A stretch of DNA of 64,000 bases from Sclerodactyla briareus (taxonomy: Eukaryota > Echinodermata > Holothuroidea > Dendrochirotida > Sclerodactylidae), in contig JAODTK010001777.1 of NCBI GenBank assembly GCA_026419785.1, positions 97,001 through 161,000 of the forward strand, read 5' to 3'. Positions 1,446-63,360 of the stretch are shown one piece after another. The notes beneath the pieces were generated by a model. The model saw only the letters and a program-made list of their open reading frames with translations, was not told where the DNA came from and ran no database searches. Position 1 is the first letter of the stretch. Each line of letters opens with the position of its first letter. The position numbers were made by a program, and so were the translations under genes.

Positions 1446-2498
1446 TTTGAAGCTCGTTGTTGTTGTTTGTCCGTTGTTGTCATTGTCGTTGGTGTCGTTG
1501 ACGTTGTGGCAACACCCGACGCATACTAGTGTTTAAACCTAACACCGTTGTTCATTTTCTGAAAACCAGTGTTCTGAATGTCAACGATACCGGCCCACCA
1601 TTAAAACTCACAATTGACAGGTTTTCGAGATTTAATTAGTTGCAACTACTTGACATATCCTCGGTTTAAACATGTAAATATGTGTTCAAAAAGGTTCTAA
1701 GCCGTTGAATCTAGACAACTCTGTATACAATCTCATCCCTCGTGTGACATGTTATGACTTTGTTTGGAAATTATTTGAACCTAAATTGTCCGCTACTCTC
1801 CCTTTATCCTGTTCAAGCCGGTAAGATTGCCGGAAATCCCCGTATTGATTGCGATACCACGCGGACCACGCGGGCGGCGGAAAAAATCGCTACCTGAGAC
1901 CGATCGAGAAAACGCCCTCCCGCCGCCCGTCCGCTTGCCTGAAACGGCTCCAGTGAAAATAACGATGAGTCGATTTATGACGTCCCTCCCGCCCGCTTGC
2001 CTGGAAACGGCGCTTAAACGCAGCTTAAATTAAGGGCGGAAAAATTGCCATGATATCACAAATTGTGTTAAATGTCTTTCTGGCAAGAGTCTCTGAAAAA
2101 AGTTGAGAACATGCCCCCCGCTCTCCTCTATCAGCCTTCCCCCTCCCGAACAACCACCGCCCGTGAGTGTATGTGGGCGCGGCCCAGTAAACCTTTAGCT
2201 TCATTTCGGGACGTCATTGTTGGCTGGTCAGGTGCAGGGATGGGTACGTGCAACTTTGGCAATCCTGGGGGCTGAGTTGGTCCCTTCATTTTTATTACAA
2301 ACCCGCGCGGTTAATCAAAATTATGTTTAGTTGTCAGAAATAAACTTCGTCCGTCCAGATTTATAAGACGATGTCTCATTGATGCAAGGTTCCAAATCAC
2401 TACACTGAGAATAATCCACGGGGGTTAATGTTATGTCAACAGGAATCTGAATGTCCAATTACAGAAATTTAAATTAACTGTTTGGGCCTGCCTTGGCC
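1446..2498. other. Intergenic, no supported gene
   Basis: Includes a GTTGTYGTT-rich stretch near 1450-1510. The small open frames here are short, show no domain and lack supporting splice sites. Confidence 0.5.
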
Positions 2499-7640: not shown

Positions 7641-8520
7641 TAAAATAGCATATTCAGAAAATAGCTTACTCCGTTACAGCTCCAAAAGAAGCCATGCTTA
7701 TGTGCACTAGGCAAGGCGCTTAATCGCCCTCCTCCCAGCAAAATTGATAAGTGGGGAAGGGTAGTCGAGGGGCCTAAGCACAACCGGTGTTGTATTAGCT
7801 GATTGCCACATATCGTTAGAGTACCACTATCAAGCTTCATCCCCCTATGACGTGGGTTATGGGTAATATCTGTGAATCAAGGCACGGGCTGCCATTACCG
7901 ACATACACAAAGTGCTCCATAATGGCCCCAGGCTATGCTTCCAGGTAGGCTTAGGGAAAACCAGCAAAGGTTGTACAAGTACTAGGTAATAGATTGGTCT
8001 TGTGTAGCTCCAGATGACTCTTTACTCTAAAGGTTTACACAGTCTGAATCATGATGAGACCGGATCCGATCAGCTTATGTGCACTTTGAGCAGGCACTAT
8101 CTCCAGCCTGGTGATAATTAGAGACTGGAGGTTTCCGTTTACACCATACACTCTACTACAGCCACAGGCTGTGTTCTCCAAAGAGGGATGTTGAGAGCCG
8201 ATCTTTTCCCCGCTAAAAACTGTGAGTACAAGCCCCCTTCACTGGGGGCCTGCAAAACAGTGTGCCAACTATCTGGCTCTCAATGCATGTTCTATTTACT
8301 CCACTCGCAGTCAACTCCTGTTCAAGCTCATACCTGGCAGATTCAGGGCAAGACAGGCAAAGTACAAAGTAATTATCCGATCATCTACTGTTAATAGCCT
8401 CTCTGGCAGTTCCAGGACAATCAGTCAGATGTCAGTCAGGAGACAGCAGGTTGGGGCAGGCCAACACTTACATACCATTGTTGGCACAGCTTTGCAGGAC
8501 CCTTTTAATCAATGGATTTG
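7641..8520. other. Intergenic, nothing recognised
   Basis: A 112-codon plus frame starting at 8222 runs into the G-rich tract and has no recognisable domain; not called as a gene. Confidence 0.45.
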
Positions 8521-15376: not shown

Positions 15377-15520
15377 TTCCTTGCCGAAGGGCCAAAAGGA
15401 ATCTATGCAGTTAGCTAAGTCACGCACCATGCGTATTTGTGGCTGTGTGTGGCTGTGTGTGACACCCCTTGTCAGCACGATATCTAGAGAACGCGAGCAT
15501 GTATGAAAACTGCGGGTCTG
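15377..15520 (+). mobile_element. Hairpin-headed repeat family, copy 1 (short)
   Basis: Starts with a hairpin at 15377-15401: left arm TTCCTTGCC, loop GAA, right arm GGGCCAAAAGGAA. It is followed by TCTATGCAGT, a GTGTG-rich stretch, and then CACCCCTTGTCAGCACGATATCT and ACGCGAGCATGTATGAA. The same order is seen at 59863 onward. Three other copies are listed at 23320-23990 (minus), 25479-25760 and 59863-60490. The class is unknown; no ORF is present, so it would be non-autonomous. Confidence 0.65.
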
Positions 15521-45779: not shown

Positions 45780-46390
45780 ACTGTGAATGAAAGTTGCCTA
45801 CATTATGCATATTAAGCCCCAATACCCAAACCTCCCTGAAACCATTCTCTCATTTTTAAATCTCAGGACCAACACGTAATAAATTTCATGGGGAACCAAC
45901 AAACCATTTGCATAAATGAAGGAAGTATACACATTTAGCAACCCCCAGCGACTCCAGTCACTGTGAAAACTGATTTGTGGGACTGAGTCATACCCATCAA
46001 GCTTCATGAAAATGAACAAAAAACTTGAATTCTGGATAAATATGCAAAAATAAAAGCACTGATGACCTCCAGTGACCTTCAGTCTGCATTTTTAAAATGT
46101 TGGGAGAGTGAACTCACTCAAACCATGCCCACCCAGGTTTCATGAAAAAATCCCAAACCACCTTCGGATTTGCATAAATTATGCAAATTACAGTAGACAT
46201 GGAATGACTTCTTGAACCGAATCTTGTTAGAAGTTTCGGGACTAAGATAGACCATAGTTACCACCATGTTTTCTTGACTCTTGGGATCCGACGAACTTTG
46301 AAATTTTGCAAATTAGACCGACGTGTTTACCATAGTTTACGCAGATATGCTATTGTGATTGATTCCAGTTTATATATCAGTGATAAAACT
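45780..46390. repeat. Interspersed repeat with TTTCATGAA and ATGCAAAT blocks
   Basis: AAGCTTCATGAAAATG (about 46001), AGGTTTCATGAAAAA (about 46136), ATTTGCATAAATTATGCAAA (about 46171) and TTTGCAAATTAGACC (about 46303) recur. They match the 24.6-24.95 kb repeat. The part from 45780 looks like an additional related unit (AAATTTCATGGGGAACC, CATTTGCATAAAT). Confidence 0.5.
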
Positions 46391-50381: not shown

Positions 50382-51380
50382 GGTGACAGCCGATGTTCAT
50401 AGGGTTTTATTCATAAGGTCCCGTTTGTCATAAGGCCTTTTATTTTAAGCCTTTTGTTCATAAGACCGTTATTCATAATGGCCGAAAAGTCTCTTTATTC
50501 ATAAGGTCCGATATTATAATCACAACAGAAGGTGTTCCGATGTTCATAATAGTAAAAACGGTCCTTCATTCATTAATGTGAAAAGGTCAGTATTAATAAT
50601 AGAAAAAGGTCCGTTATTCATAATAGGGAAAAGGTCCGTTATTCATACTGAGAGAAAAGGTCCGTTATTCATAAGGGAAAAAAGGTCGATATTCATAATA
50701 GGAAAAAAGTTCCGTTATTCATATAGGGAAAAGGGTCGATATTCATAATAGGAAAAAGGTCCGTTATATAATAGGGAAACAAAAACCGGTCGTGGATCTG
50801 CCAGGTGGGGATCGCAGATGATAAAAAGTGCAGTTTTAGGGTTTGCATTCCTTGTTTTTTTTCTTTGTTTGTTTGAGCGACCTCGCATAGGTAGAATCAT
50901 CTGCTTGGCAAGTAGTCATTGAAAAGAAACACATAAGAATAACGGACCTCTTCGCGATTATGAATTACGGACCTCTTTTGATATGATGAAAACGGACCCT
51001 TTTCACAATTATGAAAACGGGCCTTTTTAGTCATTAGGAATAACGGCAATCTTTTGCTATTATGACTAACGGTCCCCGTCGCTTTTATGAAATACGGACC
51101 CTTTCCCTTTTCGCTATTATGATTATTGGACCTTTTTTAATATTATGATATGGACCTTGTGCTCTGTTATGAAAACGGACCCTTGTGAATTATGAAAAAA
51201 CGGCCTTTTGAGTATTATGAATATCGGACCTTACGAACGAAAGGACCCTTTTTATTAGAATATCGGACCTTTTGGTTCATATGCAAAGACCCTTTTCGAA
51301 AAATTTGCACGTTAGAAATAACGGGCCGTATGAACAAAAGGCCTTATGAATAAAAGGCCTTAGGAACTCGGGCGGTCCCC
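50382..51380. mobile_element. Foldback element with tandem-repeat inverted arms
   Basis: Left arm (about 50382-50790) is a degenerate tandem array of GGTCCGTTATTCATAATAGG plus a short A-rich link, about 25 bp per unit and about 15 units. Right arm (about 50930-51380) is an array of the reverse complement (CTATTATGAATAACGGACC with T-rich links), about 16 units. The outer ends are inverted: GGTGACAGCCGATGTTCATA at 50382 against GGGGACCGCCCGAGTTCCTA read inward from 51380. The 140 bp centre holds an inner inverted 8-mer, CAGATGAT at 50815-50822 and ATCATCTG at 50896-50903. No ORF. The design (long inverted repeats built of short tandem repeats) is that of foldback transposons such as sea urchin TU and Drosophila FB; TU units are 15 bp, so this would be a different family. 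No clear target-site duplication. Confidence 0.85.
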
Positions 51381-57129: not shown

Positions 57130-59860
57130 GCACTAGATACATAATGGATAGATAGATCGATATGGTTATTAACTCCAACAGGGCAATTACCTGGCTCGTA
57201 GATAAAAAGGTAAAAATGATAAGAGGATACAAACATAAAGACGTATGTGGCACACACAATAAAAACGTAGATCACTAAGACAATAAAACAGAAACAAGAA
57301 ACGATGGGATATGGAACCAAATGAATGCTCAATGGCAAGAAAGGGTACATGAAATAGTTGGGCGAAGGCAAGCAATGGACAAGTGGGGAAAATGACGAGT
57401 CTAGTAAAGTTCTTGTTTAAAAAATTTCTTATAGCCTGACTCACAAATGAGGACTGATAACGGTTCGTGTGTGTACGAGAAGGCCTCATTCTACCCACTG
57501 CGTGGAATAATCGAACTATTAAGCTTACTTAACATAGGGTGGCTATCATCTCTTAACACTAGCATTTACCTGTTCATAGACCTCTCGCTCGCCTTTCATA
57601 AACGTTCCCATAGTAAGGAAAAGGCACACCAACTCTTGACTAGGTCTTCTTCACAAACTGTAATTATCAATGTGAAGATTTGGTAGTATTGTCACTCCAC
57701 GATGTAATAGAAGTAAACAATCGCTGCCGATATAATTATAAACAGAGACAAATGTATTTGTATTGATTCATCACTCCTTTCCAACCTCTTATCATTTATT
57801 ACCACTTGTGCGGGTACGGTCCTATTAGCCCTTCGAAAATCAACAATCATCTCCTTCGTTCTTAGTAACATTTAAAACGAGGTGATTCTGCTCACAGGTA
57901 CTCACAAAATTGAAGACCTGCTGCTGGTAACTGCGGTCATCATACATTCCTGATCAAGCCAATAAGAGCAGTGTCATCGGCAAACTTGACGAGAGGGCAA
58001 CATTGGTCAGTAGAGCGTATACCAGCAGTATACAAAGTGAAAAGGAAAGGAGCTAGAACCGTACCCTGTGGAACTCCGGTGCTACATGATGTAACCTCAG
58101 AGTGGACAGTATGGTTTAAACGAACATACTGTGTACGGTTGGTGAGATGTGTAGAATCCACTCCACCGGAGCACACGGGAGAACACCTGCTTTGAGTAAG
58201 ATGTCTGCCAAAATTGGGGTTGTATGGTGTTGAAGGCAGATGAGAAATAAAAAACAATATACGTGCTGACACCGTACCAAATCTAGATTCTTCGAGATGA
58301 GAATATAGCTTGTCTAATGTATATAATATGGCATCTTCATTATCAACGATCTTTTTTTTCGATGAGCAAACTGGAAATCATCTATAAAATCCACAGTGAC
58401 TTCCTTTAGGTATTGTAATATGAAACGTTCACATGTCTTCATAGCGATGGACGTCAGTGCCACTGGCCGTAGACGTAGATCGTTCATAGTTGTATTGACT
58501 GATTTCTTGGGGACTGGTATAATGCACGATGGTTTCCATAAATGAGGACTAGTTTGAGTCTCAAAACACATGTTAAAAATATAGGTGAAAAATATAGCAA
58601 GTTGGTGATTGCACTGTTTTAGGACACGTGGTGACAGATTATCGGAACTACAGACTTCGATGCATTCAACTTCAAAAATTGGTGGCGCACTTCATTCTCC
58701 GTCACAGCTAGGAATGGAGCAGACCTTCCGATGTTAGGCTGAATATACGATCGATTCATCTGAAAATCCTGAGAGTCAAAGCGATTGTACAAGGTGTTGA
58801 GTTGATTGGCATAAGCGTCAGATGTGTCTGGTGTTGGGCACTGTCTGGGGTTGTTGTTGGTATATCCACTTATCATCCGCATCCCATTCCATACACTTCT
58901 GATGTCATTAGTCGTGAAATGATTTTCAATTTTCCGTCTGTAAGCGTCCTTTTCAAGTTCTATTGCATTGTTTATATCCGACTGAACTATTTTCATTTCC
59001 TGCTTCGATCCTGACTTGAATACTTGCTTCTTCCTATTATGCTTGATCTCTTTGGTAATCCAGGTTTATTGTTCGGATAGCACTTCACCGTCTTCTTGGG
59101 GATCACAAGGTCCTCGCAAAATCCGATGTAGGAGGTAATGGTATCAGTCAATTCATGGATGTCCGATGCTGAATTAAAAAAACATGTCCTAATTTGTTTG
59201 GTCAAAACAATCCTGTAACTGTTCCACGGCATTATCTGACCACTGTTTGATGGATTATAACACGGGCTTGAACACGTTGAACAGTGGGCCTGTACTTTGG
59301 TAAAAGCAACACAAGGTCATGGTCGGCTTCACCGAGTTCAGTCAACTGGTCAATGGAGATGAGACGTACTGTAAGCATCTTTGACGTTTGTATAGCCAAA
59401 TACCATGTTTTGTTTCCCCTCGTGTTGGGCATTTGACATGTTGGTACAGCGTAATCCAGGGCGATTTAGTGATCCATGATTGAAGTCACCATGATGACAA
59501 TAAGTGCGTCTGGGGCAGCGGTTTCAAGTTAATCGTGAATGGCATTAGTCAGTTCAATGCTCCCCGCCTTGGCAACGGATTTGTCTGGAATGTAAATAGT
59601 ACAGCACTGTACGTGGGAAACTCACGTGGTAAATAGTATGGTCGAATTGAGACGGTCAACATTTCCAAATGGGCGGCGTACACGTTGTCGGGTGGCACCA
59701 GTTACGTTTATGTAAACACATCACCTTCCCCGATCCGCTTACCGGCAGCCTCCATGTCTCTGTCACCACCGAACGATCTTGAAACATCTATGAATACACA
59801 ATCGTCAGTGTGATTGTCTGGTAGCCAAGTCTCCGTAAATGATAGTATGCTCGCATTATT
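57130..59860 (-). mobile_element. Non-LTR retrotransposon (CR1/Rex1-group-like), endonuclease part to C-terminus
   Basis: Minus strand, element 5' at 59860. In order: partial endonuclease with ASILSFTETWLPDN (about 59820-59862); linker pieces at 58993-59432; IENHFTTNDIRSVWNGMRMI (58619-58996), the usual pre-RT linker; NDLRLRPVALTSIAMKTCERF-type RT block (58430-58510); FSSAFNTIQP (about 58215-58255); GVPQGTVLAPFLFTLYT (58027-58076); KFADDTAL with the catalytic Asp pair (about 57966-57990); LVLNVTKT (about 57870); and C-terminal RTHTNRYQSSFVSQAIRNF (about 57420-57490). Frameshifts separate these blocks and the endonuclease N-terminus is missing, so it is inactive. It is the most complete LINE in the window. 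The 3' end near 57130 is uncertain. Confidence 0.85.
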
Positions 59861-59942: not shown

Positions 59943-60490
59943 TCACCCCTTGTCAGCCCGATATCTGCAAGAACGCAGCATGTATGAAGCTTCAAATAAG
60001 TATGTGGGTTGGACAATAGAGAGGATGACCCTACCGTTTTCGGTCAGTGCCCAGCTCAGTCTTCAAAGGTCACGAGAAGGCAAACTTCAGAAAGCTTGTC
60101 AGTAAGATATCTAACGAACGCACGCATGTATCAAGTTCAAATTAGGTATGTGGGTGGTACGTATGGTGTGCAGGGTGAACCCTATGGTGTTTGGTTTAGG
60201 TCAGATCTAGGTCATTTGAGGTCACCATAGGGCAATCCCTATATTATGGCAACTTATGGGGATGTGTAATGGAAAGTTTTGTTCGTCTGGGCGAGCTACA
60301 TCTGGTGACCTAATTGACCCAATTTGACCTGTTGACCTCATTTGACTTCTGATCTTTGTGACCAAGACAGCCTTAAAACACGGAATTTGTAATTGACGTC
60401 GCCATTGACATCTTGGCAACAACACACTTAGAAAGAGTTCCTGGTAATGGAAAGAGGTGGTCGTCCAGGCGAACGCACTGCAGGTTCGGT
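59863..60490 (+). mobile_element. Hairpin-headed repeat family, copy 4 (longest)
   Basis: Head hairpin at 59863-59885: arms TTCCTTGCC and GGCAAAAGGAA, loop GAA. Then TCTTGCAGTG, a (GT)n tract to about 59940, CACCCCTTGTCAGCCCGATATCT and ACGCAGCATGTATGAAGC. The body has internal tandem copies: GATATCT..GAACGCA..CATGTAT at about 59962 and again at about 60108, and TAATGGAAAG..TCGTC..GGCGA at about 60269 and about 60447. It abuts the truncated endonuclease of the LINE at 57.1-59.9 kb. Right end uncertain; the long minus frame at 60222-60671 is a by-product. Confidence 0.65.
59893..59941 (+). repeat. (GT)n microsatellite inside the hairpin-headed repeat
   Basis: Alternating GT with two TTG interruptions, at the same place in the element as shorter GTGTG stretches in copies at 15.4 and 25.5 kb. 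Confidence 0.95.
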
Positions 60491-63176: not shown

Positions 63177-63360
63177 GGCCCCTCCCCCTCTCCCCTGCCC
63201 TCACCCCCCCCCTCACCTCCCCCCTCACCCCCCTCTCCCCCCCCCCCCCCCCCTCCCCCCAGCCCCTACCCCCCCCCCCCCCCCCCCTCCTCCCCCCCCC
63301 CCCCTCCCCCCCCACTCCCCCCCCCCCCCTTTTCCCCCATTTTTTTTTTTTTATTTTTTT
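63177..63360 (+). repeat. Extreme C-rich tract followed by poly-T
   Basis: About 160 bp of C with scattered T and A, ending in a T-run at about 63341-63359. The proline-rich open frame over it is low-complexity translation. Confidence 0.95.

What the first reader, a model, noticed from the sequence alone, without database searches (positions are those of the whole stretch)
50382..51380. Foldback transposon whose inverted arms are ~25 bp tandem repeats
Two ~400 bp arms, each about 15 degenerate units of GGTCCGTTATTCATAATAGG type, face each other across a ~140 bp unique centre, with inverted outer ends and an inner inverted 8-mer. TU elements of sea urchins and FB of Drosophila share this architecture but with different unit lengths (15 and 31 bp). 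The unit here appears distinct, so it may be an undescribed foldback family. Unit erosion is similar on both arms, which hints at co-evolution of the arms rather than independent drift.
Basis: partly seen in the sequence, partly recalled or inferred. Interest (0 to 1): 0.7.

Follow-up and report, generated by a model that had tools for sequence, protein, structure and literature searches.

The report
Old foldback transposon with repeat-filled arms
This stretch is one worn copy of an old, dispersed jumping-DNA family of an unnamed eukaryote whose two ends are long mirror-image arms built of short repeated units; it is a real mobile element of a known general kind, with no enzyme gene of its own that could be recognised.

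Summary
Window 50382-51380 is one copy of a dispersed family in the 319 Mb host assembly (27 other places cover at least 90% of it; 144 termini at up to 2 mismatches, 0 for the reversed pattern). Insertion made an 8-bp target duplication: 14 of 33 bounded copies match at 7 or 8 of 8 flanking bases, against 0 of 1056 cross-copy pairs; the window copy's own is lost. An empty site of one copy lies in this same window (1511-2015). Co-evolution of the arms is not supported: arms of one copy (0.750 identical) are no more alike than arms of different copies (0.752). Arms are rows of a 16-bp core, abutting at the outer end, with 10-bp spacers further in. A 5.3-kb form shares the ends; no gene was recognised in either form. 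Terminal GG and 8-bp duplications fit the Merlin superfamily, but no transposase with these ends was found. The family is old (about 10% from its majority). Most likely a non-autonomous foldback-type element whose arms are transposase-binding arrays: a new family of a known kind, its absence from repeat libraries untested.

The parts
50382..51380 (+). one copy of the foldback-type transposon family
   Evidence: 27 other places cover at least 90% of it; ends shared by copies; K2P 0.108 to the family majority
50382..50779 (+). left arm, about 18 core units; outer 16-bp zone to about 50485, inner 26-bp zone after it (zone limit approximate)
50780..50933 (.). centre without units; no gene recognised; about 30 bp beside the left arm is shared with the 5.3-kb form
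50934..51380 (-). right arm, about 19 core units, inverted; outer 16-bp zone from about 51312 (zone limit approximate)
50382..50405 (+). left terminus, family form GGTGACAGCCCGATGTTCATAAGG
51357..51380 (-). right terminus, family form GGGGACCGCCCGATGTTCATAAGG read inward
1511..2015 (+). copy of a different dispersed repeat without the element: the empty-site counterpart of insertion L044 (C1884)

Best explanation
An old copy of a dispersed, non-autonomous, foldback-type cut-and-paste DNA transposon family. SHOWN: shared ends, 8-bp target duplications, an empty site, a star-like set of copies, independent decay of the two arms since insertion, a 16-bp core repeated in both arms, and a longer form with the same ends in which no gene was recognised. 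INFERRED: a transposase supplied in trans recognised the GG-ended termini and bound the 16-bp cores, so that each arm was a multi-site landing array that made the element a strong substrate, and inserted it with an 8-bp stagger. INFERRED with less certainty (about 0.45): that transposase was of the Merlin (IS1016/IS1595-like) kind. The transposase source is dead, lost, or not found in this assembly.
For: Dispersal and ends. Octamer duplications: 7 perfect and 7 at 7 of 8 among 33 copies; 0 of 1056 cross-copy pairs above 6 of 8; no other length from 3 to 12 shows a comparable excess. Empty site: joined flanks less one octamer score 544 against window 1511-2015, parts 323 and 229. Star-like tree: terminal branches 3.35 of 3.55. 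Cores 0.91-0.97 alike between units, spacers 0.61-0.80. Precedent for repeats in long arms as transposase sites: Galileo (PMC3688188, passages). Terminal GG with 8- or 9-bp duplications is stated for Merlin (PMC8101967, passages).
Against: No transposase gene with these ends was found. The one Merlin-type fragment in the assembly has none of the family's ends beside it. The window copy has no duplication (1 of 8 in register, 4 of 8 at best with slipping), and 19 of 33 copies fall below 7 of 8 in register. If the ends may slip by up to 3 bases, 21 of 1056 control pairs also reach 7 or 8, so only the in-register count is clean. Binding of the cores is untested. Mutator, hAT and P transposases were not searched for.
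Confidence: 0.75

Rival explanations
1. Local inverted duplication of a minisatellite, not mobile.
For: The arms are tandem arrays, and arrays do grow locally in some copies.
Against: Dispersed copies with shared ends, octamer duplications and an empty site.
Confidence: 0.01
2. A foldback element of the Mutator superfamily, to which most foldbacks have been assigned (as stated in PMC4079207, passages), with short duplications.
For: Architecture; Tetris, with 8-10 bp duplications, was put there by its authors.
Against: The duplication here is sharply 8 bp: no excess at 9 or 10. Typical Mutator length (9 bp or so) is recalled, not from a call.
Confidence: 0.25
3. A foldback-like element of the hAT or P superfamily, both with 8-bp duplications.
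For: Duplication length; Galileo, a P-superfamily element, has long repetitive arms (PMC3688188).
Against: Termini begin with GG, whereas hAT (CAGGG/TAGGG-like) and P (CA) ends differ (recalled, no call).
Confidence: 0.2
4. Arms kept alike by gene conversion within each copy.
For: The majority arms are 86% identical.
Against: No within-copy excess: 0.750 against 0.752; 42 shared deviations against 47.8 expected. It could still have acted in the source element before the burst.
Confidence: 0.03

Closest known systems
Foldback-type elements: FB of Drosophila, TU of sea urchin, Tetris of D. virilis
   Same: Long inverted arms filled with tandem repeats, no recognised gene, short target duplications (8-10 bp in Tetris, passages; 8 bp in TU is recalled), arm repeats that seed satellites (Tetris; here L062 and L081).
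   Different: Unit: a 16-bp core in 16- and 26-bp steps here, against about 220 bp in Tetris and, as the finding gives them, 15 bp in TU and 31 bp in FB. No TU or FB sequence was compared.
Galileo (P superfamily), Drosophila
   Same: Long internally repetitive arms; there the repeats hold functional transposase sites (PMC3688188, passages).
   Different: Galileo encodes a P-like transposase; none was recognised here. Termini were not compared.
Merlin superfamily (IS1016/IS1595-like)
   Same: Termini beginning with GG, 8-bp duplications, imperfect inverted ends; internal tandem repeats reported in some families (PMC8101967, passages).
   Different: No Merlin transposase between these ends; that paper does not contain the word foldback.

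Membership tests
Foldback-type (long-arm) DNA transposon | long inverted arms made of tandem repeats | tested here: met
Foldback-type (long-arm) DNA transposon | dispersed copies with the same ends | tested here: met
Foldback-type (long-arm) DNA transposon | target-site duplication of fixed length | tested here: met
   8 bp, 14 of 33 copies at 7 or 8 of 8 in register, 0 of 1056 controls; window copy itself 1 of 8
Foldback-type (long-arm) DNA transposon | empty site without the element | tested here: met
   L044 against window 1511-2015
TU (sea urchin) or FB (Drosophila) | sequence homology of units and ends to TU or FB | not tested
   no TU or FB sequence was at hand; host not identified
Merlin superfamily | termini begin with GG | tested here: met
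   criterion from PMC8101967
Merlin superfamily | 8- or 9-bp target duplication | tested here: met
   8 bp
Merlin superfamily | DDE_Tnp_IS1595 transposase in the family or in a partner with the same ends | tested here: inconclusive
   no such domain in the 10 plus 4 open frames of the long form scanned; one fragment elsewhere (41.4 bits, cut-off 27) not beside these ends; a lost or unassembled source stays possible
Mutator superfamily | target duplication of about 9 bp (recalled) | tested here: not met
   excess at 8 bp only
Mutator, hAT or P superfamily | matching transposase with these ends | not tested
   these families were not searched in the assembly

The most novel reading that the evidence does not exclude
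The arms are phased binding arrays: a 16-bp core in steps of 16 bp (outer) and 26 bp (inner), which differ by about one helical turn, with the step held by selection on the source element while the 10-bp spacers drifted, so that successive transposase subunits keep a fixed rotational relation along the arm. It would be a foldback class with a measurable spacing rule, possibly the first within Merlin.
Probability: 0.2. Interest if true: 0.55.

Novelty: new member of a known kind. Interest (0 to 1): 0.33.

Why it matters
It is a well-bounded foldback family with many copies, an empty site, a clear duplication length and at least two size classes, so what the repeats in long arms do can be asked with numbers. 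Two copies also show arm units growing into local arrays of 45 and 75 near-identical 26-bp units, a case like Tetris of satellite DNA starting from a foldback arm. As a transposon it is otherwise ordinary: old, without a recognised gene, and of a kind long described.

Tried and rejected
Merlin transposase as partner: one PF12762 fragment in the assembly; in its 9.9-kb neighbourhood the best match to the family's ends, body or centre is a 14-base one at E 0.015.

Autonomous copy by longer interior: L069 is longer because of a nested insertion with TAGCC-like ends and an 8-bp near-duplication, read by eye. Of 20 regions reaching inward from termini, two are a 5.3-kb form (L078, L083; 77.9% identical over a 5567-column alignment) and one a relative of about 4.1 kb (L082). 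Nine places besides the query itself, L078 among them, cover at least 90% of the 4301-base interior query (40 of 2906 candidates scored). Eight interiors aligned gave a majority whose longest open frame is 155 aa, against mean 109 and maximum 151 in 50 single-base shuffles: just above them all, so not proof of absence of coding. Pfam scans of 10 open frames of L078 and L083 (best E 0.016, 15.8 bits against a cut-off of 28.9) and of 4 of the 5 longest open frames of the majority (best E 0.3) gave nothing over cut-off; short or spliced exons would be missed.

Arm conversion after insertion: rejected. Short form as a plain internal deletion of the long form: half supported; they share arms and about 30 bp inside the left arm, but the rest of the short centre is not found in the long interior (best E 0.76). 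In-register descent of inner units in the two arms: no peak in register.

Unit in viral contigs: 26 stretches with one 16-base match each, not read further. Phage records: no match. Rfam and tRNA: nothing in the window. Searches used the wrong end of L041 (flank, not terminus), found only themselves and say nothing. One search printed nothing (BLAST setting) and was redone. In one search, with 20 copies, many far ends were placed badly (14-18 of 24 bases), so its low scores are not evidence either way; 3 of the 20 had a perfect octamer (one of them placed by hand).

Rows dropped: 7 of the 40 loci (L061, L062, L065, L067, L068, L071, L072) were left out of the duplication test because an end was missing or unaligned; L069 was also left out of the 32-row alignment. 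The 40 loci include the window copy (L074).

Full report
Observation. The window lies in a eukaryote-like assembly of 319.5 Mb in 3171 contigs, no name given (contig C1746, 97001-161000); that it is a eukaryote is my reading of size and content. At 50382-51380 two arms face each other across a centre of about 150 bp. Left arm against the reverse complement of the right scores 304 in local alignment; 100 shuffles reach at most 77, and the arms in direct orientation 78. The strand folds at z = -13 against 20 shuffles. Tandem Repeats Finder reports a period of about 25 in both arms.

It is a transposon. A search of the host assembly with the 999 bases gave 156 matches from the 40 scored of 392 candidates; 27 places besides the window cover at least 90% of the query, at 74-81% identity. 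The family's left end reads GGTGACAGCCCGATGTTCATAAGG and its right end, inverted, GGGGACCGCCCGATGTTCATAAGG. A pattern covering both has 144 matches at up to 2 mismatches, and none when read backwards (about 100 places were listed, the counts are whole).

Target duplication. In 33 copies with both ends (7 of 40 fetched loci left out because an end was missing) the 8 bases on either side agree at 0.595 on average, against 0.256 for flanks of different copies; lengths 3-7 and 9-12 give 0.262-0.370. Seven copies match at 8 of 8 and seven at 7 of 8; none of 1056 cross-copy pairs exceeds 6. If the ends may slip by 3 bases, 21 of 1056 control pairs reach 7 or 8, so I count in register only. Three further perfect octamers occur among the 20 later copies (L085, L090, the second copy in L077). 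The window copy matches at 1 of 8: its own duplication is lost or the copy has recombined.

Empty site. Both flanks of copy L044 align to window 1511-2015, another dispersed repeat that lacks the element. Joined less one octamer they run through the junction (score 544, parts 323 and 229), with one single-base gap inside the octamer. L044's own octamers agree at 5 of 8 in register and 7 of 8 with a one-base slip.

Anatomy. In the majority of 32 copies (1003 bp; copies 0.83 alike on average) each arm is a row of one 16-bp core (GGCCTTTTATTCATAA to GGTCCGTTATTCATAA), 18 left and 19 right. At the outer end cores abut (16-bp steps); inside, with a few exceptions (24, 27 and 37 bp, and single 16-bp steps), they are separated by 10-bp A-rich spacers (26-bp steps). 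Among 9 left and 11 right inner units, cores are 0.91-0.97 alike and spacers 0.61-0.80. Of 24 units of 22-30 bp, 21 are exactly 26 bp; at the indel-to-substitution ratio of the decaying copies 0.44 of unit pairs should be equal in length, and 0.76 are (211 of 276). Pairs are not independent and units share descent, so this is suggestive only.

History. Copies differ from the majority by K2P 0.102 on average, 0.054-0.161 (window copy 0.108), and the tree is star-like (terminal branches 3.35 of 3.55), with six small clades at support 0.9 or more, one of which joins the window copy to L045 and L052. Conservation is flat, 0.85-0.95 in 25-bp bins. Arms of one copy are 0.750 identical and those of different copies 0.752; shared deviations (42) do not exceed expectation (47.8): no arm co-evolution since insertion. 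In the source element the left inner units were more alike (0.90) than the right ones (0.79), with no in-register peak, so the two arrays seem to have turned over separately.

Size classes and derivatives. Of 20 regions fetched inward from termini two (L078, L083) are a form of about 5.3 kb with the same arms; L078's flanking octamers read TCCGAAGC and TCAGAAGC, 7 of 8, by eye (the script set the far end one base off and scored 2), and L083's agree only with slipping. Nine places besides the query, L078 among them, cover at least 90% of the interior query. For two of these (C2990, C394) a family terminus lies 0.4-0.5 kb beyond the interior; for the others the arms were not looked at. Eight interiors are 0.777 alike on average; no convincing gene was seen (limits in Tried and rejected). 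In L062 and L081 arm units have grown into arrays of 45 and 75 near-identical 26-bp units (98% and 97%), as reported for Tetris (PMC4079207, passages).

Mechanism. Shown: insertion with an 8-bp stagger, shared ends, dispersal. Inferred: a transposase in trans and cores as binding sites. Galileo is the precedent, with functional extra sites in the repeats of its long arms (PMC3688188, passages). Terminal GG, 8-bp duplications, imperfect ends and internal tandem repeats agree with Merlin (PMC8101967, passages), but the only Merlin-type gene found is a fragment elsewhere, and Mutator, hAT and P transposases were not searched for. I therefore do not file it under Merlin.

Novelty. Foldback-type elements are a known kind. 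Six answered paper searches (listings, and passages of three papers) showed no such family, but they search words in an open-licence library; no repeat library could be queried, so undescribed is unproven. The two-step 16/26 plan of the arms is the feature I would follow.

Noticed in passing
window 57940-59065, minus strand: Decayed LINE-like reverse transcriptase: RVT_1 at E 2.7e-5, 24.4 bits, below the curated cut-off of 29.6; neighbouring open frames gave no Pfam match.
   Followed up: partly
window 1511-2015: Copy of another dispersed repeat with CCCGCCCGCC-like stretches, which serves as the empty site of L044.
   Followed up: partly
window 45989-46316: Related (71-74%) to bases about 309-546 of the interior of the 5.3-kb form; further loci match the same part of the interior, so it may be a repeat of its own.
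   Followed up: no
L062:1120-2282 and L081:888-2831: Arm units expanded to 45 and 75 copies of 26 bp, 98% and 97% alike, with different unit variants: local satellite arrays growing from the transposon.
   Followed up: partly
L069, centre: Nested insertion of roughly 0.8 kb with TAGCC-like ends and near-matching octamers (CTCCTTGC / ATCCTTGC), hAT-like by eye.
   Followed up: no
G000:C2120:481981-482274 (L076): The one Merlin/IS1595-type transposase fragment found in the assembly, 41.4 bits, one stop inside.
   Followed up: partly
L044, right flank from about position 1930 of the oriented locus: A second copy of the family begins about 355 bp beyond the first in the same orientation.
   Followed up: no
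window 63179-63330, and C or G runs near 8520, 17466, 21065, 23092 and 35665: Unusually many long poly-C or poly-G tracts for one window.
   Followed up: no
window 15463-15507, 59944-59988, 60090-60134: Three copies (76-80%) of a 45-bp motif around CTTGTCAG...GATATCT, possibly another dispersed repeat.
   Followed up: no
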